Notes under the pieces: model-generated
What the model was told of the DNA's origin: nothing
Databases searched by the model: none
What the model saw: the letters and a program-made list of their open reading frames with translations, nothing else
Program-made: the position numbers and the translations under genes
In this document: positions 11,592 through 36,539 of the stretch, one piece after another
How the letters are laid out: each line of letters begins with the position of its first letter
Numbering within the stretch: position 1 is the stretch's first letter
Assembly: GCF_036199905.1 (NCBI RefSeq)
Contig: NZ_CP108109.1
Location: 2,046,001-2,110,000 of the forward strand
Direction of reading: 5' to 3'
Length of the DNA: 64,000 nt
From: Streptomyces sp. NBC_00223
GTDB lineage: Bacteria; Actinomycetota; Actinomycetes; Streptomycetales; Streptomycetaceae

Positions 11592-11649
11592 GGATGTGCT
11601 CCAGAGGGTCGGTGGCCGAGGTCGGCTGAAGATCAGGTGATGGAGGGGG

Positions 11650-20213: not shown

Positions 20214-21185
20214 ATGAAGCTCTCTGTAATGCTCCCGTTTGTTCCGAAGCGACCGGAACAGGCACTTCCGTTCGCCGGGCTGGTGAACTGGTCGTCCGCG
20301 GCACGTCTCTGGCAAGGGCAGGGGCTGCTGACAGAAGGGCACCACATCTACAGTTATCTGGCCGGTGCCGGATTCCGGTTCCCGGTCGGTTTCGGCGTTT
20401 CGCTCATGCCTTTCCGGCACCCCTATGACGCGGCGGTGCAGGCGCGCTCGCTCGCCCTGACCACCGGCCAGCCGGTGACCGCCGGGTTCGGCGCCGGTGC
20501 CCTCCAGTTGCAACGGGCGATCATGGGGCAGGAGTACCGCAGCCAACTGGGGGCCTGCCGGGAGTATCTGACCGCTGTTCGCCAACTGCTCGACGGTGAG
20601 GTGGTCGACCGGTCCGGAGAGTTCTTCGACATCCACGGGCAGCTCGACCCGTTCCCCTCGCCGCGGGTCGAGGTCGGCCTCGGCGTGTTGCGCAAGGCCG
20701 CCGCGGGCCTCGCCGGCGAGGTCGCCGATGTGGCCATCACCTGGCTCACCCCGGCGCACTACATCGAGGAGACCATCGCCCCGGCCATGGCCGAAGGGGC
20801 CCGGCGGGCGCAGCGCGGGACGGCTCCGCGGATCGCCGCGATCGTTCCCGTCGCGCTGGCCCAGGGCGACCGCGACCCGGTGGCCATCGCACTGGCCAGC
20901 AACAAGGCGCATCTGTCACTTCCGCACTACCAGAGCATGCTGCGCGGCGCCGGGCTCGACATCACGGGTGAACTCGCGTCCGACGCCAATGAATTGATCA
21001 AGCGTCAGGGCTTTCTCTACGGCGATCCCGATGAACTCGCCGAATGGCTCACCGCCTACGAACAGGCCGGCGTCGACGAGGTCGTACTGAACGTCACCGG
21101 TGTGTCGGCCGTCCACGGACCGCAGGTCGCCGTACGCGAACTCGCCGCCATTCTCAAGCTCCTGGGGAAGAGGGACGCTTCATGA
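20214..21185 (+). CDS. LLM-class F420-dependent oxidoreductase, candidate dehydroamino acid reductase
   Basis: 323 residues from ATG 20214 (GGAAG about 8 nt upstream). A luciferase-like barrel ('TTGQPVTAGFGAGALQLQR', 'YLTAVRQLLDGEVVDRSGEFF', 'VDEVVLNVTGV') of the type that uses F420 or flavin. It overlaps the next gene by 3 nt and opens the RiPP operon. In lexapeptide-type lanthipeptides an F420H2-dependent LLM enzyme (LanJC group) reduces dehydroalanine to D-alanine. With a LanKC synthetase in the same cluster, the same role is the best inference here. It is not part of the minimal daptide gene set as I know it. Confidence 0.75.
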   Translation: MKLSVMLPFVPKRPEQALPFAGLVNWSSAARLWQGQGLLTEGHHIYSYLAGAGFRFPVGFGVSLMPFRHPYDAAVQARSLALTTGQPVTAGFGAGALQLQRAIMGQEYRSQLGACREYLTAVRQLLDGEVVDRSGEFFDIHGQLDPFPSPRVEVGLGVLRKAAAGLAGEVADVAITWLTPAHYIEETIAPAMAEGARRAQRGTAPRIAAIVPVALAQGDRDPVAIALASNKAHLSLPHYQSMLRGAGLDITGELASDANELIKRQGFLYGDPDELAEWLTAYEQAGVDEVVLNVTGVSAVHGPQVAVRELAAILKLLGKRDAS

Positions 21186-22159
21186 ACGCCCGCAAGCAGC
21201 ATCTGATGGCCTGGGTGACCGGCCGGTCGTACGGGCTCGAACTCCCCGAGCGCGGCGCGGCCGTCGCCGTACTGGCCGACGGCGCCGATCTGGAGTGGCT
21301 TGTCAAGGGCGGCCTGGTCGCCCCGGAGGGCGTGGTGTACGCGCCGTCGGCCGCACCGGTCGACGGTGTCACGGTGGTGCCGTACCACGGCTCCTTCACC
21401 GAGCCGGGCTCCGAGGTCCAGCTCGGAGAGGACTTCTTTCTCCAGGTGCAGGCGTACAGCATCGCGAGCTTCCTCGCGCTGCTCGGGCCGACCGTGGTGC
21501 GGGTCGCCGACGGGGAGGACGCCGAGGCGTTCGTCGCCGACGCGGAACAGGCGCTCCACCAGGGCGTGTGGTCGGAGGTGCTGACCAATCCGGCCGTACA
21601 GCTCGCCGACGTCGCCGTGCTCGGCGGGCGGGCCCCCCAGGACGGGCGGAGTCTGCGCCTGTACGTGGGCCCGGACCACGGGGTGCGGGTCGGCCTGCTC
21701 GGGACCGTCCTGGGGAAGGCCGACGCCGGCTGGGAGGCGCTCGAAGACTCGGCCCCCGACCCGAGCCGGATCCCCGGCGGACGGGCCGCGGCCGAAGCGG
21801 TACGGGAACGGCACTGGCTCGCCCGCTACCACTCGGCGCTCCAGGCCGTGCAGTCGCTGCGGGCGCGGGGCCGCCAGAACGTCAAGGTCTCCGGCTTCGG
21901 CATGCGGCTGAACGAGGGGCTGGAGCTGGGCGCCGGTGCCCCCGACCTGTGCGACCCCCTGGCGCCGGTCCTGCTGGAGTCGGCCGACGAGCACTACGTC
22001 TACGCGCCGTCGACCAGCCGGGTCTTCCAGGCCGCCCCGGACACCGCCCGCACCCTTGAGCGTGTCCTGGTGCGGCCCGACGCGGACGACCAGGACAGCC
22101 CCGCCGTGGCGGAGGCCCGCCGCTTCCTCGAAGCCGCTGCCGGGCGGGCCGTCTCATGA
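21182..22159 (+). CDS. mpaB: Daptide biosynthesis RiPP recognition protein
   Basis: 325 residues, overlapping both neighbours by 3-4 nt. It has no catalytic motif I can name. Its position beside the methyltransferase, aminotransferase and dehydrogenase matches the MpaB slot of daptide clusters, where it is thought to bind the precursor leader and bring the modifying enzymes. Segments such as 'WVTGRSYGLELPERGAAVAVL' and 'ALQAVQSLRARGRQNVKVSGFG' are globular and soluble. The assignment rests mainly on context. Confidence 0.7.
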   Translation: MNARKQHLMAWVTGRSYGLELPERGAAVAVLADGADLEWLVKGGLVAPEGVVYAPSAAPVDGVTVVPYHGSFTEPGSEVQLGEDFFLQVQAYSIASFLALLGPTVVRVADGEDAEAFVADAEQALHQGVWSEVLTNPAVQLADVAVLGGRAPQDGRSLRLYVGPDHGVRVGLLGTVLGKADAGWEALEDSAPDPSRIPGGRAAAEAVRERHWLARYHSALQAVQSLRARGRQNVKVSGFGMRLNEGLELGAGAPDLCDPLAPVLLESADEHYVYAPSTSRVFQAAPDTARTLERVLVRPDADDQDSPAVAEARRFLEAAAGRAVS

Positions 22160-23004
22160 GCGCGCTCCCCCTCGGCCTCGAAGCGGTCGCCGGACTGCCG
22201 CCGGAACTCGCCGGCTCGCAGGCCGCGCAGGCGGTACGGACGCTGCGGTCCCTGCCGGGCCCCCTGGTCGTCTGCGACATGTACGACCCGCGCGGGGCGG
22301 ACACGTACCACGACTTCACCATGGGCGACACCTCCGAGGTCGCGGAGATCGTGCGCGAGGTCCGCCGGACCAGCGGCACCGTACTGGAGCTCGCGGCGGG
22401 GGCCGGCCGGCTGACCGTCCCGCTGCTGAGCCTGCGCCGCGACCTGATCGCCGTCGACCTTTCGCCGTCCATGCTCGCCCTGCTGCGCGAACGGCTCGGC
22501 CGGCTGCCCCGGGCAGCCGCCGAGCGGTGCGAGGTGGTGCACGGCGACATCACCACCTACACCGCGCCGCGGCCGGTCGGCGTCGCGGTGCTCGGCACCA
22601 CGAGCGTCTCGCTGCTGACCCGGGAGCAGCGGCAGGCCATGCTGCGCCGCACCTGGGAGGCGCTGGAGCCCGGCGGGTTGTTCGTCCTCACCACCGTGCA
22701 GCTCGACCCGGCGGCCGTCGCTCTCGACGAGCGGGTGCTGGACGCCGCCGGGATGTCCGGCCGGGTCTACCGGGTGTACGACCTGGTGGCACCCGATCGG
22801 TGCGGCCGGTACACCGTCGTGATCTCGACGGACGACGAGCACGGCCGGACCGTGTGCCACTCGTACATCAGGTTGGTCCCCGCCCAGGAGCTGGTGGCCG
22901 ATCTGGAGGCCGCGGGCTTCACCGTCGGCTGCTCCGCGCTGCCGGCCGCGCCGGGCGAGCGCTATGCCGGGATGCTGCTGCGCGCCGTGAAGGAGGCCCG
23001 GTGA
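22156..23004 (+). CDS. mpaM: Daptide N-methyltransferase
   Basis: 282 residues, class I SAM-dependent methyltransferase: motif I 'TVLELAAGAGRLTVPLL' (about residue 76), acidic 'IAVDLSPSML', and 'LEPGGLFVLTTVQL'. In daptides this enzyme dimethylates the new C-terminal amine made from threonine. It overlaps its neighbours by 4 nt in a tightly coupled operon. Confidence 0.85.
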   Translation: MSALPLGLEAVAGLPPELAGSQAAQAVRTLRSLPGPLVVCDMYDPRGADTYHDFTMGDTSEVAEIVREVRRTSGTVLELAAGAGRLTVPLLSLRRDLIAVDLSPSMLALLRERLGRLPRAAAERCEVVHGDITTYTAPRPVGVAVLGTTSVSLLTREQRQAMLRRTWEALEPGGLFVLTTVQLDPAAVALDERVLDAAGMSGRVYRVYDLVAPDRCGRYTVVISTDDEHGRTVCHSYIRLVPAQELVADLEAAGFTVGCSALPAAPGERYAGMLLRAVKEAR

Positions 23005-24272
23005 CCGGGACGTTGTGGCCGATGATGATGCCGCTGGCGGACGCGGACGACGACGGTATCTGTGTCGTCCGGACCTCAGGCCACCGGATCACCTTCGCCG
23101 ACGGCAACACGGTGCTCTGCGGGACCAGTGGCCTGTGGAACGCCAATCTCGGCTACGGCAACCAGGCCATCTCCGCCGCGGTCGCCGACGCGCTCGGGTC
23201 CCTGTCGTACGCGGGTGTCTTCCGCTACGAGAACGCCCCGGCCCGGACCGCCGCCGAACGGCTGATCGCCGCCAGCGCGCACGACTGGGCCCGGGTGATC
23301 TTCTCGGTCTCCGGGGGCACGGCGAACGACCTGACGATGAAGCTCGCCCGCCAGTACCACGAGCTCGGTGGCGATCCGGCGCGCAAGCTGGTCGTCGGGC
23401 TGAAGGACGGCTACCACGGGCTGACCTTCGGGGCGCACGCCCTGACCGGCGAGGATCTCGGCCAGCGCGCGTACGGCGTCGACACCCGGCTGGTGCGGCA
23501 TGTCCCGGCGAACGACGAGACCGCGCTGAAGGCGCTGTTCGCCGCCTTCGGGCGGCAGATCGCCGCGATCGTGGTGGAGCCGGTGCTCGGCAACGGGGCG
23601 GTGGTCCTGGAAGCGGGGTACGTCGAGCAGCTCGGCCGGTTCGCGGACGAGACCGGGGCCCTGCTGGTCGCCGACGAGGTGGCGACGGGCTTCGGCCGGA
23701 CCGGCGGGATGTTCGCCTCCGACGGCTGGACCCGGCAGCCGGATGTGCTGATCGCCTCCAAGGGCCTCACCAACGGCACCATGCCCGCCTCCGCGCTGCT
23801 GATCCGCGACCGGGTCGCCGACCGGTTCCGTGACACCGGAGCCGTTCTGCTGCACGGGGAGACGCAGGCCGGCACCGCGGTGACGGCGGCGGCGGTGATC
23901 GCGACGCTGGACGAGTTCGAGCGGCTGGGCGCCCTGGAGTCGGGCCGTACCGCGGCCGCCGCGCTCGACGCGGCGCTGACCCGCTGGCAAAGCGAGGACC
24001 CGGCGGTGCTGACGACCTGCGGTACGGGCTGCTTCCGGGCGGTCGTCCTGGCCGACCCGGTGCACGGCGGACCGCTGGGACCGGTCCACGTGCTGCCGCT
24101 GGTCCGGGAGATCCGGCGCGCGGGCGCCCAGGTGCACGGCGGACCGAACGGCGTCCAGCTCCTCCCCGCGCTCACCTACTCCCCGGCGGAGATCGACGAG
24201 TTGGTGTCGATCGTGCGCGACGGCGTCGCGGCCTTCTCGGCACGCGTCCGGCGCGAGGCGAGCGCCGGATGA
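23001..24272 (+). CDS. mpaD: Daptide PLP-dependent aminotransferase
   Basis: 423 residues starting at GTG 23001. Class III aminotransferase fold: 'FSVSGGTANDLTMKLAR', 'KDGYHGLTFGAHALTG', 'LLVADEVATGFGRTG' with the PLP-binding Asp, and the Schiff-base lysine at residue 254 in 'IASKGLTNG'. In the daptide pathway it transaminates the ketone left by oxidative decarboxylation of the C-terminal Thr, giving the amine. Confidence 0.85.
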   Translation: MTGTLWPMMMPLADADDDGICVVRTSGHRITFADGNTVLCGTSGLWNANLGYGNQAISAAVADALGSLSYAGVFRYENAPARTAAERLIAASAHDWARVIFSVSGGTANDLTMKLARQYHELGGDPARKLVVGLKDGYHGLTFGAHALTGEDLGQRAYGVDTRLVRHVPANDETALKALFAAFGRQIAAIVVEPVLGNGAVVLEAGYVEQLGRFADETGALLVADEVATGFGRTGGMFASDGWTRQPDVLIASKGLTNGTMPASALLIRDRVADRFRDTGAVLLHGETQAGTAVTAAAVIATLDEFERLGALESGRTAAAALDAALTRWQSEDPAVLTTCGTGCFRAVVLADPVHGGPLGPVHVLPLVREIRRAGAQVHGGPNGVQLLPALTYSPAEIDELVSIVRDGVAAFSARVRREASAG

Positions 24273-25462
24273 CCTGGATGATCAGCCGCTGCCGGGTGCT
24301 GACCGGACTGGACGTCCTGCCGGACGTGGTCCGGGAGTACGGCTTCACGGCGGCGACCGTGGCCTACGACGCGGCGATCGAGGGCAACGCCGGACTGGCC
24401 GCCGGCTGCGAGGCGCTGGCCTCGCGCGGGGTGACGGTACGTCTGCTGGCGGTGGACCGCACCGGTTCGCTGGCGGACGCCCGCGATCTCGCCGGCCGGC
24501 TGGGCCGCGGTGAACCGGTGGTGGCGATGGGCGGCGGCTCGCTGCTGGACTGCGTCAAACTGGCGCTGGCCCTGCATGATCCGCTGGCCGAGCGGGTTCT
24601 GTCCGCCCGGCAGCGCAGCGGCTGGGTGATCGGCCCCGACCGTCCGCGGCCCGCACCGCTGATCGCCGTCCCGACGACGGTCGGGACGGCGGCCGAGGTG
24701 AGCGGAATCGTCAGCTTCGTGGACGGCGGCTCCGCCAAACGCGTCTACACCAGTCTCTCCGTGCAGCCGGACGTCGCGGTGCTCGACCCCCGGGCTACCG
24801 CGGGCATGCCGGGAGAGGTCCTGGTCGAGGGGTGTCTGGAGATCCTTCTGCGGTTCGTGGGCCCGATGGTGGGGGCGCGGGGGCCGCTCACCGACACCGA
24901 CCGGCAGGTGCTGCGGGACGCCGCGGAGGTGACCGGGCTGCTGTGCCGGATCCGCCGGACCGGCGAGGCGACGGCGCCGGTCCGGGCGCGGCTGGCGCTG
25001 CTCAGCGCGCAGACGCAGCGGGACGAGAATCTGTGCGACCGTTCGGCGTTCACCGTCAAGGCATGGTTCCTGGGCAACAACCTCTCCCAGCACCTCGGTG
25101 TGCGGAAGATGGCCGCCCTGGCCAACCTGATACCGGCCTACTGGGGGCGGCTGGCGGAGGGCCCGGCGCTGGGCTCCGCCCAACGGGCGCAGCAGATGTG
25201 GGCAGTGCTGCGGGAGCAGATTCCGGTGCCGGTGGCACCGGAGCCCGGAACAGGTTTCCCGGAGTGGCTCGACTGGCTGGGCGTTCCCGCCCTGAGCCCG
25301 TTGTCGGACCACGACGTGGAGACGGTCGCACTGTCGTGCGTCCGTATGTGGGGTGGCGGACTGCCCATGCTCGGCGGCGTCGCCGCCGACGACGTCCGCG
25401 CGGTTCTGCGCGGTGTGCGCAGCGCCCCCGCAACCCATGGACTCCCGCTTTCACGCGGGTGA
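24269..25462 (+). CDS. mpaC: Daptide oxidative decarboxylase of the iron-alcohol-dehydrogenase fold
   Basis: 397 residues. The nucleotide segment 'VVAMGGGSLLDCVKLA' and 'PTTVGTAAEVSGIVSF' (from residue 135) correspond to the GGGS and PTTxGTGSE signatures of Fe-type alcohol dehydrogenases. 'WFLGNNLSQHLG' may carry a metal-ligand His. MpaC oxidises the side-chain hydroxyl of the C-terminal Thr, followed by decarboxylation. It ends 36 nt before the precursor array. Confidence 0.8.
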   Translation: MTWMISRCRVLTGLDVLPDVVREYGFTAATVAYDAAIEGNAGLAAGCEALASRGVTVRLLAVDRTGSLADARDLAGRLGRGEPVVAMGGGSLLDCVKLALALHDPLAERVLSARQRSGWVIGPDRPRPAPLIAVPTTVGTAAEVSGIVSFVDGGSAKRVYTSLSVQPDVAVLDPRATAGMPGEVLVEGCLEILLRFVGPMVGARGPLTDTDRQVLRDAAEVTGLLCRIRRTGEATAPVRARLALLSAQTQRDENLCDRSAFTVKAWFLGNNLSQHLGVRKMAALANLIPAYWGRLAEGPALGSAQRAQQMWAVLREQIPVPVAPEPGTGFPEWLDWLGVPALSPLSDHDVETVALSCVRMWGGGLPMLGGVAADDVRAVLRGVRSAPATHGLPLSRG

Positions 25463-25498
25463 GTTGATCACTTCGAGGTAGGGAGAGGAGGAATGTAC

Positions 25499-25684
25499 AT
25501 GAACGTCCTGGAGAAGTCCTCGGTCGATCACGAGATCGCCGCTCTGGAGCTGGGTCTGCAGGAGCTGGAGACCCTGGAGGCCCCCGGCTTCTGGACCGGT
25601 GTGGGTGTGGTCGTCGGTGTCGTCTCGGCCAGTGCCGTCGCCTACGGCAGCTACGCGCTGACCGCGGCCATCGTCGCCACCTGA
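25499..25684 (+). CDS. mpaA: Daptide-type precursor peptide A1
   Basis: 61 residues. ATG 25499 is chosen over 25493 because AGGAGG is 7 nt upstream of it and the duplicated copy A3 lacks the earlier ATG. The acidic leader ends in 'LQELETLEAPGFW' and is followed by a hydrophobic helix-forming core ending 'ALTAAIVAT'. The C-terminal Thr61 is the daptide modification site. No Cys is present. Core Ser43, Ser45, Ser51 and Thr33/Thr55 are available for dehydration. Confidence 0.9.
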   Translation: MNVLEKSSVDHEIAALELGLQELETLEAPGFWTGVGVVVGVVSASAVAYGSYALTAAIVAT

Positions 25685-25736
25685 TCGTCCCGCAGTTGGT
25701 TTCACACCACGTAGTTGATGAAGGGAGGGAAGAACC

Positions 25737-25925
25737 ATGCAGAACAGCGACCTGATGAACGACGCGGGCCTGGAGCTCGCGCTGCAGGAACTGGAGACCC
25801 TGGAGGCCCCCGGCTTCTGGAGCGGTGTCGTCGCCGGTTTCGAGGCAACCGCCGCCGTGGTCGCGGTGGCCGTGTCCTCCGCCGCCGTCTACACCGCGGT
25901 GGCCTCGGCCATCGTCGCCACCTGA
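25737..25925 (+). CDS. mpaA: Daptide-type precursor peptide A2
   Basis: 62 residues with a GGGAGGG site. The leader differs from A1 at the N-terminus (MQNSDLMNDAG) but shares 'LQELETLEAPGFW'. The core includes 'FEATAAVVAVAVSSAAVY' and ends 'VASAIVAT' with Thr62 last. No Cys. A1 and A2 types alternate, which could point to a two-peptide product. Confidence 0.9.
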   Translation: MQNSDLMNDAGLELALQELETLEAPGFWSGVVAGFEATAAVVAVAVSSAAVYTAVASAIVAT

Positions 25926-25993
25926 TCATTTCCGGCCCCCCGCGTTCGTGCGGGTGAGCCGATCACTGCGAGGTACGGAGAGGAGGAACGTAT

Positions 25994-26179
25994 ATGAACG
26001 TCCTGGAGAAGTCCTCGGTCGATCACGAGATCGCCGCTCTGGAGCTGGGTCTGCAGGAGCTGGAGACCCTGGAGGCCCCCGGCTTCTGGACCGGTGTGGG
26101 TGTGGTCGTCGGTGTGGTCGCGGCCAGTGCCGTCGCCTACGGCAGTTACGCGCTGACCGCCGCCGTCGTCGCCACCTGA
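25994..26179 (+). CDS. mpaA: Daptide-type precursor peptide A3 (near copy of A1)
   Basis: 61 residues, same as A1 except Ser43 to Ala and Ile58 to Val. The ribosome site GAGAGGAGG and the upstream hairpin are conserved. The loss of one core Ser means one fewer possible dehydration site. Ends in Thr. Confidence 0.9.
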   Translation: MNVLEKSSVDHEIAALELGLQELETLEAPGFWTGVGVVVGVVAASAVAYGSYALTAAVVAT

Positions 26180-26244
26180 TCGTCCCGGAGTCCGTTTCAC
26201 ACCACGTAGTTGCACCACGCAGTCGATGAAGGGAGGGAAGAACC

Positions 26245-26433
26245 ATGCAGAACAGCGACCTGATGAACGACGCGGGCCTGGAGCTCGCGCTGCAGGAACT
26301 GGAGACCCTGGAGGCCCCCGGCTTCTGGAGCGGTGTCGTCGCCGGTTTCGAGGCAACTGCCGCCGTGGTCGCGGTGGCCGTGGGCTCTGCCGCTGTCTAC
26401 ACCGCGGTGGCCTCGGTCATCGTCGCCACCTGA
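26245..26433 (+). CDS. mpaA: Daptide-type precursor peptide A4 (near copy of A2)
   Basis: 62 residues, same as A2 except Ser47 to Gly and Ala58 to Val. Same leader, same C-terminal Val-Ala-Thr. The upstream spacer carries a 13-bp insertion ending in 'CACCACGCAGT' relative to the A1-A2 gap. Confidence 0.9.
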   Translation: MQNSDLMNDAGLELALQELETLEAPGFWSGVVAGFEATAAVVAVAVGSAAVYTAVASVIVAT

Positions 26434-26447
26434 TCGTTGCTGAGTGA

Positions 26448-26482
26448 CCCGTGCCGGGGCAGTCGCGATGCCCCGGCACGGG
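26448..26482 (+). terminator. Strong hairpin after the precursor genes
   Basis: Perfect 14-bp stem CCCGTGCCGGGGCA / TGCCCCGGCACGGG with a 7-nt loop, just after A4 and 30 nt before the next start. Probably a partial terminator or RNA-stabilising structure that keeps precursor mRNA above that of the downstream export genes. Confidence 0.6.
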
Positions 26483-26512
26483 GGTACCACCGTACCCAGA
26501 GCTTGGAGAAAC

Positions 26513-26719
26513 ATGAACGGGCAAGAAACCAACATACCCCCTCAAACCATCCTGCTCGCCCTTCTGGGACTGCTTGCCGCTCTGGGCGTCATCGCGGTGA
26601 TCCTGCTCGGCGATTCCTGGGCGCGGTGGGTCTACTTCGGGCTGCTCATCGTCGGCATCCTGGTCGCGTCGGGCGCGATCGGGGCTCTGGTCAAGGTGCT
26701 GGTGAGCCATGGCAACTGA
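26513..26719 (+). CDS. Small two-helix membrane protein
   Basis: 68 residues, GGAG 7 nt before ATG 26513. Two hydrophobic segments (about residues 12-32 and 39-62) joined by 'GDSWARWV'. It overlaps the ABC ATPase start by 11 nt. Small membrane proteins of this kind often serve in RiPP immunity or help the transporter; nothing more specific can be said. Confidence 0.65.
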   Translation: MNGQETNIPPQTILLALLGLLAALGVIAVILLGDSWARWVYFGLLIVGILVASGAIGALVKVLVSHGN

Positions 26720-27422
26720 ACAGCCCGCCATCAGAGTCGAGGGACTGTCCAAGTCCTACGGTGACCGCCAGGTCCTCGTCGACGTCACCTTCGAGGTCGC
26801 CCGGGGACGGGTCGTCGGGTTGCTCGGCCGCAACGGCGCGGGCAAAACCACCCTGATGAAGACACTGCTGGGGATCGCCACTCCGGACTCCGGCACCGTC
26901 GAGGTGCTGGGCCGGGCGCCGGGGCCGCAGCTCGCGCATCAGGTGGGTGTCGCGATGGACACGGTGGGCTTCTACCCGTCCACGACGGTCCGCGGCGAGC
27001 TGGCCATCTGGTCCCAGGCTCTCGGCATCGGTCCCGACCGCGTCGCCGAACTGGTGAGCCTGGTCGACCTGAAGGGTCACGAGCGCCAGCAGTGCGGCAA
27101 GCTCTCCACCGGTCAGCGGCAGCGGCTGAGGCTCGCCATCGCCCTGCTGTCGCCCACGACCGAGCTGCTGCTGCTCGACGAGCCGGCCAACGGCCTCGAC
27201 CCGGACGGCATCCGCTGGATCCGGAAGCTGATCCGGGAGCTCGCCGCGTCCGGCAGGACCGTCCTGGTCTGCAGCCATCAGCTCGGCGAGATGGAGAACA
27301 CCGTCGACGACGTGCTGCTGCTCGACGAGGGCCGGATCGTGCACACGGGGTCCCTCACGGACCTCACCCAGGGCGGCGAACGGTCGCTGGAAGAGCGGTT
27401 CTTCGAGATCGCGGGGAGATGA
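26709..27422 (+). CDS. ABC transporter ATPase of the RiPP cluster
   Basis: 237 residues. Walker A 'GRNGAGKTT' about residue 40, signature 'LSTGQRQR' about 133, Walker B 'LLLLDEPANGLD' about 153, switch His in 'LVCSHQLGEM'. It belongs to the CcmA/bacitracin-type group that pairs with a separate permease for peptide export or self-protection. The permease follows after 6 nt. Confidence 0.9.
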   Translation: MATEQPAIRVEGLSKSYGDRQVLVDVTFEVARGRVVGLLGRNGAGKTTLMKTLLGIATPDSGTVEVLGRAPGPQLAHQVGVAMDTVGFYPSTTVRGELAIWSQALGIGPDRVAELVSLVDLKGHERQQCGKLSTGQRQRLRLAIALLSPTTELLLLDEPANGLDPDGIRWIRKLIRELAASGRTVLVCSHQLGEMENTVDDVLLLDEGRIVHTGSLTDLTQGGERSLEERFFEIAGR

Positions 27423-27428
27423 CAGATC

Positions 27429-28178
27429 ATGACCACGGCAACGCTGGTACGTCACTCACGTGCCGAAATGCTGAAGGTGACCCGCGGCCGCGCCATGCTC
27501 GGGCTGGTGCTCGGAGGCGTGCTGTGGTGCGTCCTGACCAGTTACGGCTACTACGTGGACGGCGTCAAGATCCCGCTTCCGCCGGGCTCGGGCGCGGTGA
27601 CGGGCCAGGTCGTCCGCGCCTGGATGATGCTGCTGCTCTTCTCCGCGATCGCGGGCGCGATGATCGTGACGCGGGACTTCTCGCAGGGCACGATCTCCCG
27701 TACGGTGCTCGCCCTCGGCGGCAGGCGTGAGGCCTTCGCCGCGAAGCTGGTGGCCACGGTGCTCACCTCGGCCGGCTTCGCCGTGGTGGCGGTCGTCGGC
27801 GCCGGGCTGAGCGGGCTGGTCGCGCTGCGTTCCAACGCGCAGCTGGTCTGGGACAGCGGATGCACCCAGACCCTGCTGGGCGTCGCGGCCTGCATGATGC
27901 TGGCCGGCCTGTGGGGGCTGGCGGTCGGCTGGCTGGTCCGCAACCAGACGCTCTCGGTCCTCGCCATCGTGATCATGGTGGTGGGTGTGGAGCCCGCGAT
28001 CCAGCGGCTGGTGCCCGACGTGGCCCAGTTCCTCTTCACGATCGCGCTGAGCTCGGTCTACCGCGACGGAAAGCCGGATCTGCTGCCGGTCGGCGCCGCC
28101 CTGGGCGTCTGCGCCGTGTGGATCGCGGGCCTCGGCCTCGCCGCCCGGACCAGCTTCTTCCGCCGGGACGTGGGATGA
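27429..28178 (+). CDS. ABC transporter permease of the RiPP cluster
   Basis: 249 residues with about six membrane helices, ABC-2 permease type. 'VTRDFSQGTISRTVLALGGRR' is the typical cytoplasmic motif of BcrB-like permeases. Together with the ATPase it probably gives immunity or exports the mature peptides. It overlaps the protease gene by 4 nt. Confidence 0.85.
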   Translation: MTTATLVRHSRAEMLKVTRGRAMLGLVLGGVLWCVLTSYGYYVDGVKIPLPPGSGAVTGQVVRAWMMLLLFSAIAGAMIVTRDFSQGTISRTVLALGGRREAFAAKLVATVLTSAGFAVVAVVGAGLSGLVALRSNAQLVWDSGCTQTLLGVAACMMLAGLWGLAVGWLVRNQTLSVLAIVIMVVGVEPAIQRLVPDVAQFLFTIALSSVYRDGKPDLLPVGAALGVCAVWIAGLGLAARTSFFRRDVG

Positions 28179-29851
28179 GCCCGATGCGCCTCGCGCTGCG
28201 CAGGGCACAGGAGGAGACGGCCGGTACGGAGCCGGTTTCGACCGCCTATCTGGAACGTCCCCGGCTGAACGACGGAGTCCAGGTGCACGCCCCGTCGGAG
28301 GAGGGCCAGCCCTGGCTGCTCCAGCGCGGGGAGCACCAGTACTTCCGGGTCGGAGCCGATCTCGCCACACTCGCCGGCCGTCTCGACGGTGACGGCGACG
28401 CGGCGCAACTGGCCGACCGGATGGGCGCGCCCTGGACCGAGCAGGCCGTACGCGCCGCGCTGAAGACCCTGGACGACGCGCACCTGGTGGACCGGCAGGA
28501 CCCCGGGCAGCAGGTGCGCAGAACACGCCGGCTGAAGTACGTACCGCCGTTCACCTTCCAGTTCACGGTGCTGCGTTCCGGCACCCGGCTGGCACACCGG
28601 ATCACCGGTCTGCGGCTGGTGTCGGCGCGGACGCTCGCCGTCCTGGTCGGTGTCCTGGGCGCCGCCGGCGCCGTCGCGCTGATGACTCAGCGCGCACATC
28701 TGGCGGACGTGCTCGGGCGGCCGGTCTCGCTACAGACCATGTTCGTGATCCTGGCGGCCGTCTCGGTCACCACGGTCGCCCACGAACTGGGGCACGCCTG
28801 CCTTCTCGCCCACTACGGCGGGCGTCCCGGTCGCCTCGGTGTGATGCTCTTCTACCTCTCCCCGGCGATGTTCTGCGACGTCTCCGACGCCTGGCGGCTG
28901 AACCACCTCCAACGTGCCCGGGTCGCCCTGGCGGGGATCATGGTCCAGGTCGGGGTGAGCGGCGCCGCGGCCTGCTCCACCGCCTTCGCGGGCCGCGGGA
29001 ACACCGGCGACGTACTGATGCTCTTCGCGGTGGTGAACGTCGCGGCAGCCGTCGTCAACGTGGTGCCGTTCGTGAAACTCGACGGCTACATCGCCCTGAT
29101 GAGCTATCTCGACCGGCCGAACCTGCGCGACACGGCCCTGGCCTCCCTCCGGGACCGTTTCGTCGCGCTGCTGTCCGGGAAGCGGATCCGGTCGCAGGAG
29201 CCCAGCTGGCTGCCGTGGTTCGGTTTCCTCTGCGCCATCGCTCCGATCGCCCTGGTGGTACGCGCGCTGGGCCAGTGGCTCAACTCGCTGCTGTCGCTGG
29301 GTTACTTCGGAGTCGCGCTGTCCGCCACGATCACCGGCTTCGTCGCCCTCGTAGGGGTGAAGGCGGGCATCCGGCTGGTACGGGCGCTGCGGCCGGCCCG
29401 ACTGCGCCCGTGGCGGGTGGCGGCGCTGCTCGTGGTGGTCGCCGCGCTGCTGACGGCCGTGGCCGGCATCCACATGACGTACAGCCGGGTCGGCTCCTAC
29501 CAGGTCGCCGCGGACGGCCGGGTCTATCTGATGGTCCCGTCCGGTGTCGACGACCGGCCCGTGCGGGCCGGCGACCGGGTGGAGCTGCTGAAGGCCGGCA
29601 TGGTACTGCACCACACGGTGGGCACCGCCACGGTGGCCGTGTCGCAGGGCAGCCCGATGATGATCCCGCTCACCGGTCTGATTCCGGTGACCGCCGACGG
29701 GGTGAAGGTTCCCGGGGACCGGTACCTGCTCCGAGTGGACGGCCCGATCACGACCCAGCAGGGCAGCGTACGGCTGCACTCGCGGTCGGTGGTGCTCCCA
29801 CGCTGGGCCTACGAGCGCTTCGTGCGGCCCCTCTTCGCCACGTTCGACTGA
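28175..29851 (+). CDS. mpaP: Daptide intramembrane metalloprotease
   Basis: 558 residues. The N-terminal soluble domain (about residues 1-140) has a winged-helix look ('AALKTLDDAHLVDRQD'). The membrane core carries the M50 zinc site His203-Glu-Leu-Gly-His207 in 'VAHELGHACLL' and a probable third ligand Asp in 'VPFVKLDGYIAL'. Several more helices and a C-terminal extracytoplasmic domain follow ('RVGSYQVAADGRVYLMVPSG'). In daptide clusters this enzyme is thought to remove the leader. Confidence 0.85.
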   Translation: MSPMRLALRRAQEETAGTEPVSTAYLERPRLNDGVQVHAPSEEGQPWLLQRGEHQYFRVGADLATLAGRLDGDGDAAQLADRMGAPWTEQAVRAALKTLDDAHLVDRQDPGQQVRRTRRLKYVPPFTFQFTVLRSGTRLAHRITGLRLVSARTLAVLVGVLGAAGAVALMTQRAHLADVLGRPVSLQTMFVILAAVSVTTVAHELGHACLLAHYGGRPGRLGVMLFYLSPAMFCDVSDAWRLNHLQRARVALAGIMVQVGVSGAAACSTAFAGRGNTGDVLMLFAVVNVAAAVVNVVPFVKLDGYIALMSYLDRPNLRDTALASLRDRFVALLSGKRIRSQEPSWLPWFGFLCAIAPIALVVRALGQWLNSLLSLGYFGVALSATITGFVALVGVKAGIRLVRALRPARLRPWRVAALLVVVAALLTAVAGIHMTYSRVGSYQVAADGRVYLMVPSGVDDRPVRAGDRVELLKAGMVLHHTVGTATVAVSQGSPMMIPLTGLIPVTADGVKVPGDRYLLRVDGPITTQQGSVRLHSRSVVLPRWAYERFVRPLFATFD

Positions 29852-29865
29852 CGACGGGAACCGAA

Positions 29866-32460
29866 ATGTACCTGACCTACCTCGAATACTGCCTGCCGTC
29901 GTCCCCTTTCTACGAGCGGAGGGACACCGACTCCCCCGACGACACGGGCAGGTTCTTCGGGCTGCACCGCGACCCGGCTCCCGAGGGTTGGTCGCGTGGG
30001 CTGCGGGCGGAGTGGGTCATGTACACCCCGGGCGGCGCGGAACTGCGCTGGCAGGGCTGGAAGATCCATGTCAGCGCCACGACGGAGAACGCCGAGCACT
30101 TGCTGCGGACGGTGTCGGCGTACTGCCTGGCCCACCGGATCCCCTTCAAGGCGCTCTCCGGCCTCCCGGCGCTGACCCGCCGCAACAGCAAGTACGCGGA
30201 CCGCGGCGGGAGCGGCAAGTTCATCACCCTGTACCCGCCGTCGGACGAGGTGTTCGCCTCGGCGCTGGGCGGGCTCGACGCGCTGACGGGTGGTGAGCCG
30301 GGCCCGACGATCCTCTCCGACCTGCGGTATCTGGAAGGGCCGCTGTACGTGCGGTACGGGGCCTTCGTCTCCCGGCAGACCACCGACGCGAGCGGGCGGC
30401 GGGTGGAGTGCGTCGAGGACCCGGACGGCAATCTCGTCCCCGACGAGCGCCGCCCCGGCTTCCACCCGCCGAGCTGGGCGCAGATCCCGCCGGTGCTGGA
30501 GGAGTCGATCGCCCTGCGCGGCAGCCGCACCCTGACCGGCTTCCCCTACGCCGTGCGCAAGGCCGTGCACTTCTCCAACGGCGGTGGGGTGTATCTCGGC
30601 GAGCGCCGCGACACCCCGGGCAAAACGATTCTGCTCAAGGAGGCGCGGCCCTACTGCGGCCTCGACGAGAGCGGACAGGACGCCCTCACCCGGCTCGAGC
30701 GGGAGCGCGACGCCCTGCTCGACCTGGCGGGCCTGCCGGGAATTCCGGCCGTGGACGCCTATGTCGACGGAGTGGAGCACAAGTTCCTCGGCCGCGCCTA
30801 TGTCGAGGGCAGGCCGCTGATGGAGCTGGCCTTCGAGCGCAACCCCCTGATCAGCCCCGACAGCACCATGACCCGTGGGGAGTACGCGGAATGGGCCCGG
30901 GCGATCGCCGCTCAGGTGGCCGACACGGTCGGGCAGATGCATGCGCGCGGCTGGGTCTTCGGTGACCTCCACCCCGGCAACATCATCGTGGACGACGAGC
31001 AGCGGGTGCACTTCATCGACTTCGAGAACGCCTCCCGCGACCTCACGGACTACGTCCAGACCATGGGCGTCTTCGGCTTCCGGGCACCCGACGGCTACCG
31101 GGGCCGGGCGGTCGACCTCTTCGCCCTGGGCTGTATCCGGCTCGGTCTGCTGATGCCGCTCACCCGGCTCGTTCCGCACGGGCGGGCCCGCACCGCCCAG
31201 CTGTGCGCGGCCGCCGTCGAGGAATTCGACCTGCCGCCGGGGTACTTCGAGGGGATCGACGAGCAGCTGGGCCAGGGCTCCGCGGGCCCGGACGATGCCG
31301 GGCGCGGGCCCGCGCTGGAGGTCGCGCCCGCGCGGGAAGCCGGGCACGCGGAGGAGGTCGCGCCCGCCCTGGAGGCCGGCCCCGCGCAGGAGGTCGGGCT
31401 CTCGCCGGAGAGCGCCTGGACGGCGGAGCAGCTGGCCGCCTGCCTGGGCCGCTGGCGCTCGCCCGAGCGCGAGGACCGGTTGTTCCCGGGCGACATCCGG
31501 CAGTTCCTGGAGCCCTCGGGCGGACTCGGACTCGCCTACGGCGCGGCCGGGATGCTGTGGGCCCTGCACTCGTCCGGCGGCACCGTCGACCCCGACGACC
31601 TGGGCTGGCTGCGCGAGCGGGTGCACGCCGCCGCCGATCTGCCGCCCGGCTTCTGGAGCGGCCTGGCCGGGATCGCCTACGCCACCGAGCAGATCGACCC
31701 CGACCTGTCGGACCACTGCGTACGCCTGGCGCTCAGCCGCGCCGCGGACACCCAGGACCTCTCGCTGGGCAGCGGTCTGAGCGGGCTGGGAGCGTATCTG
31801 CTCCACGAGGGAGGGCAGTTGGAGGCGGTGGACGAGCTGGCCGCCCGGGTCGCCAAGGCCGCCGAGGAGGGCGGCGACCATCCGGTGCCCGGGCTGGTCG
31901 CCGGAGCGGCCGGGCTCGCGTCGTTCGCCGTGCGTGCGGGCCGGGCGCTGGACAACCCGGAGTACGAGGAGCTGGCCACCCGGCTGCTGGACCTGGAAGT
32001 CGGCCGGTTCGGTTTCGCGCCCGGCGGAGTCCCGGTCCGGGGGGCGCTGCCGGCGTTCGGCGCGGGCATCGCCAACGGCGCCCTGGGGCTCGCGTTCGCG
32101 CTGTACGACCACGAGCGGCTCACCGGCAGCGGCCGGTTCACCGCCGCCCTTGACCGGATCGTACGGATCGCCCGGCAGACCACCGCGATCCACAACGGGC
32201 TGCTGAGCGGCCGGGCCGGACAGGTGCAGCTGCTGACCGCGGTCACCCCGGACGACCCCGCCTCCAGGCGGACCGTCGAGCGCTGCCTGCGGGAGTCGGA
32301 CTGGTACCTCACCCGGCTCGGCTCCGAGCAGGTCACCCTGGGCAACGAGGAACTGAAGCTCTCGCTCGACCTGGGCACCGGGCACGCCGGCCTGCTCGTC
32401 ACCCGGCGGGCCGCCGCGACCGGGGCCTGCACCCTGCCGCTGTGGGAGCGGCAGCCGTGA
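29866..32460 (+). CDS. lanKC: Class III lanthionine synthetase LanKC
   Basis: 864 residues. An N-terminal phospho-Ser/Thr lyase-like domain (about 1-210) is followed by a kinase domain with the ATP Lys in 'KTILLKEARPY' (about 255), catalytic 'FGDLHPGNIIVD' (about 365) and metal-binding 'FIDFENAS' (about 385). The C-terminal cyclase-like domain (about 520-864, 'SGLAGIAYA', 'IHNGLLSGRAGQVQL', 'DLGTGHAGLLV') lacks the Cys-His-Cys zinc site of LanC, so it is class III. A Glu/Ala/Gly-rich insert (about 480-515) separates kinase and cyclase. It would phosphorylate and eliminate Ser/Thr. The local precursors have no Cys for ring formation. Confidence 0.9.
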   Translation: MYLTYLEYCLPSSPFYERRDTDSPDDTGRFFGLHRDPAPEGWSRGLRAEWVMYTPGGAELRWQGWKIHVSATTENAEHLLRTVSAYCLAHRIPFKALSGLPALTRRNSKYADRGGSGKFITLYPPSDEVFASALGGLDALTGGEPGPTILSDLRYLEGPLYVRYGAFVSRQTTDASGRRVECVEDPDGNLVPDERRPGFHPPSWAQIPPVLEESIALRGSRTLTGFPYAVRKAVHFSNGGGVYLGERRDTPGKTILLKEARPYCGLDESGQDALTRLERERDALLDLAGLPGIPAVDAYVDGVEHKFLGRAYVEGRPLMELAFERNPLISPDSTMTRGEYAEWARAIAAQVADTVGQMHARGWVFGDLHPGNIIVDDEQRVHFIDFENASRDLTDYVQTMGVFGFRAPDGYRGRAVDLFALGCIRLGLLMPLTRLVPHGRARTAQLCAAAVEEFDLPPGYFEGIDEQLGQGSAGPDDAGRGPALEVAPAREAGHAEEVAPALEAGPAQEVGLSPESAWTAEQLAACLGRWRSPEREDRLFPGDIRQFLEPSGGLGLAYGAAGMLWALHSSGGTVDPDDLGWLRERVHAAADLPPGFWSGLAGIAYATEQIDPDLSDHCVRLALSRAADTQDLSLGSGLSGLGAYLLHEGGQLEAVDELAARVAKAAEEGGDHPVPGLVAGAAGLASFAVRAGRALDNPEYEELATRLLDLEVGRFGFAPGGVPVRGALPAFGAGIANGALGLAFALYDHERLTGSGRFTAALDRIVRIARQTTAIHNGLLSGRAGQVQLLTAVTPDDPASRRTVERCLRESDWYLTRLGSEQVTLGNEELKLSLDLGTGHAGLLVTRRAAATGACTLPLWERQP

Positions 32461-33509
32461 CGAACCCGGTGACCTTCTCCGTCATCTGCCCCACCTACAA
32501 CCGCTCGGTCCGGATCCTGCCGACCCTGCGGTCCGTTCTGGCGCAGACCGTCGGCGACTGGGAACTGCTGGTGCTGTCGGACGGCAGCGACGACGACACC
32601 GTCGAGGTGGTCTCGGCGCTGGCCCAGACCGACGACCGTATCCGGGTGTTCGAGCTGGAGCGGTCCGGTCATCCCAGCGGCCCCCGGCAGGAGGGCCTGC
32701 GCCGGGCCCGGGGCAGCCATATCGCCTATCTCGACCACGACGACGTCTGGCGCCCCGACCATCTGGCGTGGCTCCGGACGCTGTTCGCCGACGAGGCCGA
32801 CGGGGCCGACTGGGCGGCCACGGGATACCGGGCGGTGGACGACTCCGGCGCGGTCGTCCGGAGCAGCGCCTGGTGGGACATGTGCTGGCACCCCGAACTG
32901 CAGATCCTCGACCCGCTGTTCGAGCCGAGCCGGGTCGCGCACCGGCGCGGTCTGCCGGAGTCGGTCGGTGGCTGGGTCGTCACCTCCGGCCTGGAGGACT
33001 GGGACCTGTGGTTCCGGCTGACCCAGGCCGGGCACCGGGTGCGGACCACCACCGCGCGGACCGTCTCGGTCTTCGAGGGTGCCGGGACCCGACGCTACGG
33101 CGTCGGCCCCCGGCACCTGGCCAACCTGCTGGTCACGCCGGACGCCAGGGTGGCGAAACGGATCCGGGACGCCCTGAGCGATCCGGAGGTCGGCCGGGCC
33201 CTGAAGGAGGCGTCGCGTGAGGACAGCCGCCGCCGTATGGCCAGGCTCGGCGCGAGCCCGCTGTACGTGGCACCGCTGGCCTCGGCCGAGGTCCCGGAGC
33301 CGGATCCGGACCCGGTGATCGCCGACGGGTACCGGGGGCCCCAACCGGTGATCGTGCCCCACCGCGGGCAGTTCGCGCTCGCCGTCCCGGTGTACTGCTC
33401 GACGGCCGCCCACGCGGAGCGCCTGGGCGAGCTGCTGCGGTCGCACGCCACCGCCCAGGTCCAGGTCCTGCGCGGCCTGGAACAGCGGTTCTCGCCGGCC
33501 GCGCTGTGA
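32457..33509 (+). CDS. Family 2 glycosyltransferase
   Basis: 350 residues from GTG 32457, overlapping the LanKC stop by 4 nt, so it is part of the operon. The GT-A fold begins with 'FSVICPTYNRS', then 'ELLVLSDGSDDDT' and the metal motif 'AYLDHDDVWRPDH'. 'GLEDWDLWFRLTQAGH' is the usual acceptor-region ED motif. The C-terminal 80 residues are unusual and may be an extra domain. It may glycosylate the peptide. Last gene of the cluster, followed by a terminator. Confidence 0.85.
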   Translation: MTNPVTFSVICPTYNRSVRILPTLRSVLAQTVGDWELLVLSDGSDDDTVEVVSALAQTDDRIRVFELERSGHPSGPRQEGLRRARGSHIAYLDHDDVWRPDHLAWLRTLFADEADGADWAATGYRAVDDSGAVVRSSAWWDMCWHPELQILDPLFEPSRVAHRRGLPESVGGWVVTSGLEDWDLWFRLTQAGHRVRTTTARTVSVFEGAGTRRYGVGPRHLANLLVTPDARVAKRIRDALSDPEVGRALKEASREDSRRRMARLGASPLYVAPLASAEVPEPDPDPVIADGYRGPQPVIVPHRGQFALAVPVYCSTAAHAERLGELLRSHATAQVQVLRGLEQRFSPAAL

Positions 33510-33965: not shown

Positions 33966-35141
33966 CCCCTGGGGACTCGTAGGGGCGATAAGGGACACAT
34001 GACGCCGCATACCTGCCCGGATGGCGTCCACCCGTTGTGACCCCTCGTAGGGGCGATGAGGGACACGTCAAGCACCGGACGCTCGTTGACTGGCTCGCGT
34101 TGTGACCCCTCGTAGGGGCGATGAGGGACCCGCCGCCGGGAGCTACGCCGGACGGGCGGAGAAGGCGTTGTGACCCCTCGTAGGGGCGATGAGGGCCCGG
34201 CTGCCCCGGGACCTGGTCACCGGCTGCCCAGTGTTGTGACCCCTCGTAGGGGCGATGAGGGACCCGTTGAGGACGTACGGCCACGGTGGTCGATGACCTG
34301 TTGTGACCCCTCGTAGGGGCGATGAGGGACGTGCCGGTCCTGCGGCCGGGCGTACCTCGTCCGCAGGTTGTGACCCCTCGTAGGGGCGATGAGGGACCTC
34401 TCTGACAGGCACGTACGGCGGCTTCGACAACGCGTTGTGACCCCTCGTAGGGGCGATGAGGGACCCGCCCAGACCTGCCGCTCCCAGTCCTCCGCCGTCT
34501 CGTTGTGACCCCTCGTAGGGGCGATGAGGGACCCCCGGGGCACGGCCGACGAAAGACACGAGGTACGCGTTGTGACCCCTCGTAGGGGCGATGAGGGACC
34601 CGTCTGCATGAAGATGGAGCGTCGCGGGATGCGCGTGTTGTGACCCCTCGTAGGGGCGATGAGGGACCAGCCCGCTCTACCCGTCCGAGATCGCCGTGTG
34701 CTGGTTGTGACCCCTCGTAGGGGCGATGAGGGACGATCTGCTCCCCCTTGCCGGGGGAGGTCGTCCAGGCGTTGTGACCCCTCGTAGGGGCGATGAGGGA
34801 CCCCCGTATGCACAGGGAGCGCACACGTTCACTTCGTGTTGTGACCCCTCGTAGGGGCGATGAGGGACCCCTGTACGACGCGGTCGGCCGCACGGTCAAC
34901 GCCGTGTTGTGACCCCTCGTAGGGGCGATGAGGGACCCGGGCTCAGGTCGGACCAGCCGGTGAGGGCCCATCGTTGTTACCCCTCGTAGGGGCGATGAGG
35001 GACTGGCGGACGGCCTCGATCTTGCCCTGCTTGCACCAGTTGTTGTTACCCCTCGTAGGGGCGATGAGGGACAACACTGACGGGCTGTTCGACAGCCGGT
35101 TCGTCCTGTTGTTGTTACCCCTCGTAGGGGCGATGAGGGAC
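33966..35141 (-). CRISPR. CRISPR array 1, 18 repeats of 31 bp
   Basis: Transcribed leftwards from a leader beside cas2. Repeat starts on the plus strand: 33966 (degenerate terminal), 34034, 34099, 34167, 34233, 34300, 34367, 34434, 34502, 34569, 34637, 34704, 34771, 34838, 34906, 34973, 35042, 35111. Spacers are 34-38 bp. The repeat holds a stem CCCCT-ACG-AGGGG. The three leader-proximal repeats read GGGGTAACAAC where all others read GGGGTCACAAC. The copy at 34167 ends GGCC on the plus strand. Confidence 0.97.
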
Positions 35142-35286
35142 CCCACGGTAAAGCCGCAGCTCAAAGCGGCTTCCGTGGGGTGGTGGCGGAGGGTTTTTGC
35201 AGTGGACCTCCGGTCGTGCGTGCCGGCCCGGTGTGGCGCTGAAATACCCGGCGGCCGGGGCTTCTTGGACCCAGGTGGTCGGTGGC
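35142..35286 (-). promoter_or_regulatory. Leader of CRISPR array 1
   Basis: 145 bp between cas2 and the first repeat. Close to the repeat it has a hairpin AAGCCGC(tttgagct)GCGGCTT, conserved with a different loop in the leader of array 2. It should contain the array promoter and the integration signals. Confidence 0.7.
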
Positions 35287-35550: not shown

Positions 35551-35557
35551 GCCGCCG

Positions 35558-36538: not shown

Positions 36539-36539
36539 C

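What the first reader, a model, noticed from the sequence alone, without database searches (positions are those of the whole stretch)
20214..33509. Hybrid daptide and class III lanthipeptide gene cluster
A complete daptide set (MpaB, M, D, C, P and four Thr-ended precursors) is in one tightly coupled operon-like run with a class III LanKC synthetase, an LLM/F420-type reductase and a GT2 glycosyltransferase. Known daptides carry only the C-terminal diamine made from Thr. This cluster predicts a peptide modified at both the C-terminus and internal Ser/Thr, a combination I do not know to be described.
Basis: partly seen in the sequence, partly recalled or inferred. Interest (0 to 1): 0.95.

Follow-up and report, generated by a model that had tools for sequence, protein, structure and literature searches.

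The report
Daptide cluster with predicted tyrosine sugar
This is a gene cluster for a daptide, a kind of small bacterial peptide, in which a dehydratase-reductase pair would likely turn serines into D-alanines (already shown for a similar Streptomyces cluster) and a sugar-transfer enzyme, found in the surveyed relatives only where the peptides carry a tyrosine around position 20 to 27, is predicted to attach a sugar to that tyrosine.

Summary
In detail: 20214-33509 is one tight run of a full daptide set, a class III LanKC, an LLM oxidoreductase, four Thr-ended precursors, an ABC exporter and a GT2 glycosyltransferase. The novelty claim does not. Ren et al. 2023 (PMC10036551) report LanKC/LanJC pairs in daptide clusters and show, for the Streptomyces sca cluster, one peptide with both the C-terminal Dmp and five Ser turned to Ala, with D-Ala in the products. 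Of 71 daptide loci surveyed here, 52 have both genes. The product should not be a lanthipeptide: 0 of 101 distinct cores from LanKC-bearing loci has Cys. Ser is 16.4% of those cores against 2.7% without LanKC.

What I did not find in print is the role of the GT2. In 59 loci with full flanks, 25 of 25 with the GT2 have Tyr at core position 19-28, against 2 of 34 without it (position window chosen after seeing the data). A tree-based test supports the link (p about 1e-7). I predict O-glycosylation of that Tyr; this is untested. Precedent: cacaoidin, with D-amino acids, an O-glycosylated Tyr and GT2-family enzymes.

The parts
20214..21185 (+). dapJ (LanJC-like): LLM oxidoreductase, likely reduces dehydroalanine to D-Ala
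   Evidence: PF00296; F420 subfamily models hit below cut-off; three distant PDB matches are F420 enzymes; found with LanKC in 52 of 71 loci
21182..22159 (+). mpaB: RRE-bearing accessory protein of the oxidative decarboxylase
   Evidence: NF041823 271.6 bits, cut-off 150
22156..23004 (+). mpaM: N,N-dimethyltransferase
   Evidence: NF041820 227.3 bits, cut-off 175
23001..24272 (+). mpaD: PLP aminotransferase
   Evidence: NF041821 573.2 bits, cut-off 450
24269..25462 (+). mpaC: Fe-ADH-like oxidative decarboxylase of C-terminal Thr
   Evidence: NF041822 330.1 bits, cut-off 300
25493..25684 (+). precursor A1, core 32 aa with 3 Ser, Tyr at 20 and 23
   Evidence: NF041808 34.5 bits, cut-off 25
25737..25925 (+). 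precursor A2, core 37 aa with 4 Ser, Tyr at 27
   Evidence: NF041808 20.6 bits, below cut-off 25
25994..26179 (+). precursor A3, near copy of A1 (a core Ser replaced by Ala)
   Evidence: NF041808 35.1 bits
26245..26433 (+). precursor A4, near copy of A2 (a core Ser replaced by Gly)
   Evidence: NF041808 19.7 bits, below cut-off 25
26513..26719 (+). 68-aa hydrophobic protein, possible immunity protein (function inferred only)
   Evidence: matches in the three nearest relatives, 55-61% identical, between last precursor and exporter
26709..27422 (+). ABC exporter ATPase (T1)
   Evidence: PF00005
27429..28178 (+). ABC exporter permease (T2)
   Evidence: PF12730
28175..29851 (+). mpaP: intramembrane metalloprotease, leader removal
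   Evidence: NF041824 415.1 bits, cut-off 300
29866..32460 (+). LanKC: lyase, kinase and cyclase-like domains; likely dehydrates Ser
   Evidence: NF038151 726.2 bits, cut-off 575; D367, N372 and D385 (kinase motif residues by recalled knowledge) conserved in at least 95% of 38 daptide LanKCs
32457..33509 (+). GT2 glycosyltransferase, predicted to glycosylate the core Tyr
   Evidence: PF00535; model pLDDT 94.5 matching solved glycosyltransferases; agrees with core Tyr 19-28 in 57 of 59 loci

Best explanation
This is a daptide gene cluster whose LanKC and LLM reductase likely turn core serines into D-alanines, whose GT2 enzyme is predicted to attach a sugar to a conserved core tyrosine, and whose MpaB, C, D and M would convert the C-terminal threonine to the dimethyl-diamine Dmp. 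Shown here: the genes, their order, the Thr-ended Cys-free cores, the Ser enrichment with LanKC, and the Tyr-GT2 covariation. Shown elsewhere (Ren et al. 2023, sca): Dmp and Ser-to-Ala conversion on one peptide, D-Ala in the products. Inferred for this cluster: every reaction. LanKC would phosphorylate and eliminate Ser to dehydroalanine, the reductase would reduce it to D-Ala, MpaB would present the leader, MpaC would decarboxylate Thr to the ketone, MpaD and MpaM would aminate and dimethylate it, GT2 would glycosylate a Tyr at core 20-27, MpaP would cut after the leader Pro, and the ABC pair would export long hydrophobic, probably membrane-active peptides.
For: NCBIfam cut-offs passed by the core daptide proteins and LanKC. 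KC and J together in 52 of 71 daptide loci. Core Ser 16.4% (range 9.0-27.3) with KC vs 2.7% (0-7.0) without, 55 distinct core sets (45 and 10), p=9.6e-7; leader Ser does not differ (3.6 vs 4.6%, p=0.21). 0 of 101 distinct KC+ cores has Cys. The sca precedent. GT2 present: Tyr at core 19-28 in 25 of 25; absent: 2 of 34 (p=1.2e-14). Any Tyr: 25 of 25 vs 6 of 34 (p=4.5e-11). Of 19 residue types tested (Pro was not), the next best, Asp, reaches p=1.8e-3 in the 51 distinct core sets, where Tyr gives 5e-9. Correlated-evolution likelihood ratio 37.6, p=1.4e-7, with GT2 changing 8 and Tyr 7 times on the tree; simulated GT2 histories reach the observed association 0 of 5000 times. The GT2 lies upstream of J in opposite orientation, after KC, or elsewhere in KC-less clusters, each time with Tyr. 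Loci added after the idea: GT2+ 2 of 2 with Tyr 19-28, GT2- 0 of 6. Cacaoidin precedent.
Against: No mass data for this strain. This window has the lowest core Ser content of the LanKC-bearing sets (9.0%). KC status changes only 3 times on the tree, so the Ser contrast rests on few independent events and partly on taxonomy. GT2 also tracks long cores (51 of 59 agree), so length and Tyr are partly confounded; among loci with a core of 28 aa or more, Tyr 19-28 is 25 of 25 vs 2 of 8. Grouping loci more coarsely weakens the plain count (70% aminotransferase identity p=0.02, 65% p=0.2). Two sister loci (G107, G380) keep Tyr 20 and 23 without an orthologue of this GT2 found in the genome. The Tyr idea arose from the same table and the position window was chosen after seeing the data. 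Structural matches of the GT2 do not tell its acceptor. No sugar-biosynthesis gene was looked for.
Confidence: 0.6

Rival explanations
1. The cluster makes an ordinary D-Ala daptide like sca, and the GT2 acts on Ser or Thr, or on something other than the peptide (for example cell-wall or self-protection glycosylation).
For: Nearest named NCBIfam hit is TuaG, a teichuronic acid enzyme, far below cut-off (87 vs 400 bits); structural neighbours include chondroitin polymerase, TarP and RmlT, which act on polysaccharide or wall teichoic acid (recalled for the last two).
Against: In 57 of 59 loci GT2 and core Tyr 19-28 are present or absent together, across several gene positions and about 8 changes on the tree. 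Residues next to the Tyr vary while the Tyr stays.
Confidence: 0.25
2. Tyr and the GT2 are linked only because both belong to loci with long cores; Tyr serves membrane anchoring and the GT2 modifies another site of long cores.
For: 25 of 25 GT2+ loci have a core of 28 aa or more; long core and GT2 agree in 51 of 59, also beyond 5000 tree simulations.
Against: Tyr agrees better (57 of 59). Among GT2- loci with a core of 28 aa or more, 6 of 8 lack Tyr at 19-28.
Confidence: 0.15
3. LanKC makes true class III lanthipeptide rings (lanthionine or labionin) in this product.
For: LanKC passes its family cut-off and keeps a cyclase-like domain.
Against: None of the four cores has a Cys, and 0 of 101 distinct cores from LanKC-bearing loci does.
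Confidence: 0.02
4. The LanKC here serves a separate precursor elsewhere in the genome.
For: The genome holds three LanKC genes over the cut-off; my filtered look saw no clear precursor beside the third one.
Against: The window's LanKC sits between mpaP and GT2 with nearly touching or overlapping ends, the arrangement recurs in relatives, and core Ser tracks LanKC.
Confidence: 0.03

Closest known systems
sca daptide cluster, Streptomyces capuensis NRRL B-3501 (Ren et al. 2023, PMC10036551)
   Same: Primary daptide genes plus a LanKC/LanJC pair; the product carries Dmp and five Ser turned to Ala, with D-Ala by Marfey assay
   Different: The text I read names no glycosyltransferase for sca; its gene map and core sequences (supplement) were not available to me
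mpa daptide cluster, Microbacterium paraoxydans (PMC10036551)
   Same: MpaA, B, C, D, M, P and the logic of leader and C-terminal Thr
   Different: Chosen by its authors as encoding only primary modifying enzymes, so no LanKC/LanJC or glycosyltransferase
tfDap cluster, Thermobifida fusca (PMC12338566)
   Same: Daptide core plus KC and J homologues
   Different: Has a YcaO linked to a C-terminal imidazoline; no glycosyl- term occurs in its main text
Hominicin (as described in PMC10036551)
   Same: Dmp C-terminus together with dehydrobutyrines; assigned to daptides by Ren et al.
   Different: Staphylococcal, keeps dehydrobutyrines, dimethylated N-terminus
Cacaoidin (class V lanthipeptide, PMC8068269, passages)
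   Same: D-amino acids linked to an F420-type oxidoreductase, an O-glycosylated Tyr, GT2-family enzymes in the cluster
   Different: Different RiPP class, a disaccharide, a further GT4; no daptide genes named in the passages I saw

Membership tests
Daptides | MpaB (RRE), MpaC, MpaD, MpaM homologues together | tested here: met
   All four over NCBIfam cut-offs
Daptides | Intramembrane protease MpaP | tested here: met
   NF041824 415 bits, cut-off 300
Daptides | Precursors with ELExMEAP-like leader motif and C-terminal Thr | tested here: met
   Four of four carry LQELETLEAP and end in Thr; two of four pass the precursor model cut-off
Daptides | C-terminal Dmp in the product | not testable with these tools
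   Needs mass spectrometry
Class III lanthipeptides | LanKC synthetase | tested here: met
   NF038151 726 bits, cut-off 575
Class III lanthipeptides | Core Cys to form lanthionine or labionin | tested here: not met
   No Cys in any of the four cores; 0 of 101 distinct cores of LanKC-bearing loci
LanKC/LanJC D-Ala-forming daptides (sca type) | LanKC and LLM-type reductase next to daptide genes | tested here: met
LanKC/LanJC D-Ala-forming daptides (sca type) | Ser in the cores above the level of LanKC-less daptides (my own criterion) | tested here: met
   2-4 Ser per core, 9.0%: above every LanKC-less set (max 7.0%) but lowest of the LanKC-bearing ones
LanKC/LanJC D-Ala-forming daptides (sca type) | D-Ala in the product | not testable with these tools
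   Needs Marfey assay
LanJC-type F420H2-dependent reductases | Membership of a named F420 LLM subfamily | tested here: inconclusive
   Best NCBIfam model 99 bits, cut-off 234; no LanJC sequence was at hand to compare
Tyr O-glycosylated RiPPs (cacaoidin-like) | GT2-family enzyme in cluster and a Tyr in the core | tested here: met
   GT2 at 32457-33509; Tyr in four of four cores
Tyr O-glycosylated RiPPs (cacaoidin-like) | Sugar on Tyr | not testable with these tools
   Needs MS/MS

The most novel reading that the evidence does not exclude
The GT2 of this cluster defines a group of tyrosine-glycosylated daptides: peptides with a sugar on Tyr 20-27, D-Ala made from Ser, and a positively charged Dmp C-terminus. 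The enzyme reads a single positionally conserved Tyr in otherwise variable hydrophobic cores and works with or without the LanKC/LanJC pair.
Probability: 0.6. Interest if true: 0.6.

Novelty: new member of a known kind. Interest (0 to 1): 0.45.

Why it matters
The hybrid itself is known and is the commonest architecture among the loci sampled (52 of 71), so it should not be chased as a new class. The useful result is a concrete, testable rule: a GT2 in a daptide cluster predicts a Tyr at core 19-28. If right, it assigns a function to glycosyltransferases that Ren et al. listed only as potential tailoring genes, adds Tyr glycosylation to the daptides, and gives a peptide tyrosine glycosyltransferase with many natural core variants. 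The Ser-LanKC contrast also shows at sequence level which daptides are likely written to carry D-Ala.

Tried and rejected
Rejected: the hybrid as undescribed; true lanthionine formation (no core Cys); LanKC belonging elsewhere.

Tried without use: a scan of genome contigs with the aminotransferase found one distant locus only. I asked whether the LanKC cyclase domain is decayed for lack of Cys: between the window and the other daptide LanKCs it is less alike (32%) than the lyase domain (50%), but the SapB-type LanKC of the same genome shows a like drop (36 vs 48%), so this says nothing special. A Pfam scan of ten ORFs beside the exceptional locus G107 showed no glycosyltransferase, and a whole-genome search of G107 and G380 gave only partial matches of at most 50 bits. 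Ser standing in for Gly (as coded D-Ala) is hinted at by Ser+Gly being alike in both groups (30.7 vs 27.5%, p=0.17; 31.4 vs 27.1%, p=0.057 in the earlier, smaller set), not tested further. A further search of 164 genomes gave no locus not already held. Plasmid records (7 with a match): five regions fetched. The three distinct Streptomyces clusters read (L125, L127, L128) have LanKC, no GT2 match and no Tyr in the annotated precursors; H2 is a second S. virginiae record, cut by the record end, H3 was seen as a listing row only, and H6 has the contig length of a locus already in the sample. The Actinomyces oris region shows a LanKC match, no GT2 match and no Tyr in the three short ORFs translated.

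MpaB hits not taken into the 71 loci: three weak ones below the cut-off (G437, G665; G1141) and separate fragments of loci already taken; one hit below the cut-off (G1253) was taken and gave no core.
Full report
OBSERVATION. The run 20214-33509 is real. In order on the + strand it encodes an LLM oxidoreductase (J), MpaB, MpaM, MpaD (aminotransferase), MpaC (Fe-ADH-like), four precursors, a 68-aa hydrophobic ORF, an ABC ATPase and permease, MpaP, LanKC and a GT2. Curated NCBIfam cut-offs are passed by MpaB, M, D, C, P and LanKC. J passes no named F420 subfamily cut-off, so its F420 use is inferred from its family (PF00296) and from three distant F420-enzyme matches in the PDB. The precursors come as A1, A2, A3, A4, where A3 and A4 are near copies of A1 and A2. 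Genome context: one 7.96-Mb contig, window at 2046001-2110000.

PRIOR KNOWLEDGE. Ren et al. 2023 (PMC10036551; outline, Results parts 1 and 2 of 3, Discussion and passages read) list LanKC/LanJC pairs and glycosyltransferases among potential daptide tailoring genes. They cloned the sca cluster, found on one peptide the Dmp C-terminus and five Ser turned to Ala, and found D-Ala in a mixture of two products by Marfey assay. They also assign hominicin, with Dmp and dehydrobutyrines, to the class. PMC12338566 (outline, passages and section 5 part 1 of 3 read) describes a Thermobifida cluster with KC and J genes and reports 1,034 putative daptide clusters. So the combination is already described.

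HOW COMMON. I collected 71 loci with a daptide MpaB: 70 HMM hits (1,832 genome searches counting repeats of the same genome) plus the window. KC and J are both present in 52; KC without J in 2 (one cut by a contig end); J without KC in 3 (two cut by contig ends, one beside a fragmentary MpaB). Of 39 relatives' loci compared, 22 show matches to all of J, B, M, D, C, T1, T2, P and KC in this order. Named Streptomyces plasmids carry similar sets, in two of three with a YcaO after LanKC and the exporter further on.

DOES LANKC ACT ON THE DAPTIDE PRECURSORS? Cores could be read in 63 of 71 loci (55 distinct core sets: 45 with KC, 10 without). Core Ser is 16.4% with KC (range 9.0-27.3) and 2.7% without (0-7.0), p=9.6e-7; leader Ser does not differ. 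Internal Thr is also higher with KC (8.0 vs 3.5%, p=1.2e-3). Cys is absent from 101 of 101 distinct cores of KC+ loci. KC presence changes only about three times on the aminotransferase tree, so this contrast has few independent events. One is informative: G212_C3 lies inside the KC+ clade but has no KC, J or GT2, and its cores hold 7.0% Ser and 28% Gly, while the neighbouring loci G859, G1009 and G896 hold 16-20% Ser and 14-15% Gly. This window is at the bottom of KC+ Ser content (9.0%). Another LanKC of the same genome has a Cys-bearing SapB-like precursor next to it.

THE GT2. The GT2 directly follows LanKC here and in the three nearest relatives. While reading the table I noticed that loci with a GT2 have Tyr in the core. 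I then fetched missing flanks, added ten loci and repeated the count with one HMM for the GT2 (27 proteins in 26 loci, lowest score 424 bits). Extending flanks turned up the GT2 in two of four loci that had Tyr near position 20 but no GT2 in the cut stretch (G341, G283_C1); the other two (G107, G380, sisters) lack it there, and a genome-wide search found only partial matches of at most 50 bits. In the 59 loci with cores and full flanks: any core Tyr in 25 of 25 GT2+ and 6 of 34 GT2- (p=4.5e-11); Tyr at core 19-28 in 25 of 25 and 2 of 34 (p=1.2e-14). With all 63 loci with cores, any Tyr: 26 of 26 and 6 of 37. After merging identical core sets (51): 24 of 24 and 6 of 27, p=5e-9; after merging at 80% aminotransferase identity (37 groups, 1 mixed and left out): 20 of 20 and 4 of 16, p=1.5e-6; at 70% (15 groups, 2 mixed) p=0.02; at 65% (10 groups, 2 mixed) p=0.2, with too few groups left. 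Of 19 residue types tested, no other comes close (Asp 1.8e-3, Lys 0.03). A likelihood test of correlated change on the tree gives LR 37.6, p=1.4e-7, and GT2 histories simulated on the tree never reach the observed association in 5,000 runs. Loci added after the idea: 8 of 10 with cores; GT2+ 2 of 2 with Tyr 19-28, GT2- 0 of 6, one of which (G1083) has a Tyr at position 1; plasmid clusters 0 of 3, all without a GT2 match. GT2 also goes with long cores (51 of 59), less well than with Tyr (57 of 59). The position window 19-28 was chosen after seeing the data.

LITERATURE ON TYR GLYCOSYLATION. [quoted passage not shown] The searches 'daptide' (12 papers, 8 listed), 'daptides + glycosyltransferase' (1 paper), 'RiPP + tyrosine + O-glycosylation + glycosyltransferase' (21 papers, 15 listed, titles and abstract starts seen), 'cacaoidin + glycosyltransferase + tyrosine' (3 papers) and term searches within both daptide papers showed no report of a glycosylated daptide or of a Tyr-GT link. 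The library holds open-licence papers only and no supplements could be opened, so this is a limited negative.

VERDICT. A member of the LanKC/LanJC daptides, a known kind. The product should be a D-Ala daptide and not a lanthipeptide. The added value is the predicted Tyr glycosylation by the GT2, which is computational and untested.

Noticed in passing
window 26513-26719 (+): 68-aa hydrophobic ORF between precursors and exporter, no NCBIfam hit, 55-61% identical in the three nearest relatives: candidate self-protection protein.
   Followed up: partly
window 34000-39451: CRISPR array right after the cluster (17 places with the repeat core) and, on the minus strand, Cas1 (I-B model just over its cut-off), a Cas4-like protein below cut-off and Cas3.
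   Followed up: partly
L040 9749-9871 (-) and LanKC match 10010-12613 (-): Second LanKC of the same genome with a 40-aa SapB-like, Cys-bearing precursor beside it.
   Followed up: partly
L041 7346-10183 (-): Third LanKC of the genome; no clear precursor seen beside it with my filter.
   Followed up: no
G212 contig C3 (L021, L101): Daptide locus inside the LanKC clade without LanKC, J and GT2; cores are Gly-rich and Ser-poor, a natural loss experiment.
   Followed up: partly
G107 and G380 (L027, L106, L028, L107): Sister loci that keep Tyr at core 20 and 23 without a GT2 orthologue found in the genome: the only exceptions to the Tyr 19-28 rule in 59 loci.
   Followed up: yes
KC-bearing loci: 48 of 53 LanKC-bearing loci with cores encode two or more different cores, often one with a GW.. 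and one with a GF.. start (by eye): possible two-peptide systems.
   Followed up: no
L125, L127 (Streptomyces plasmids): Plasmid-borne daptide clusters with LanKC, an LLM gene and a YcaO directly after LanKC, as annotated.
   Followed up: no
G859 contig C4 near 292254-292893 (L114): Second daptide locus with MpaB in pieces and a J match but no LanKC match or readable core: looks like a decayed cluster.
   Followed up: no
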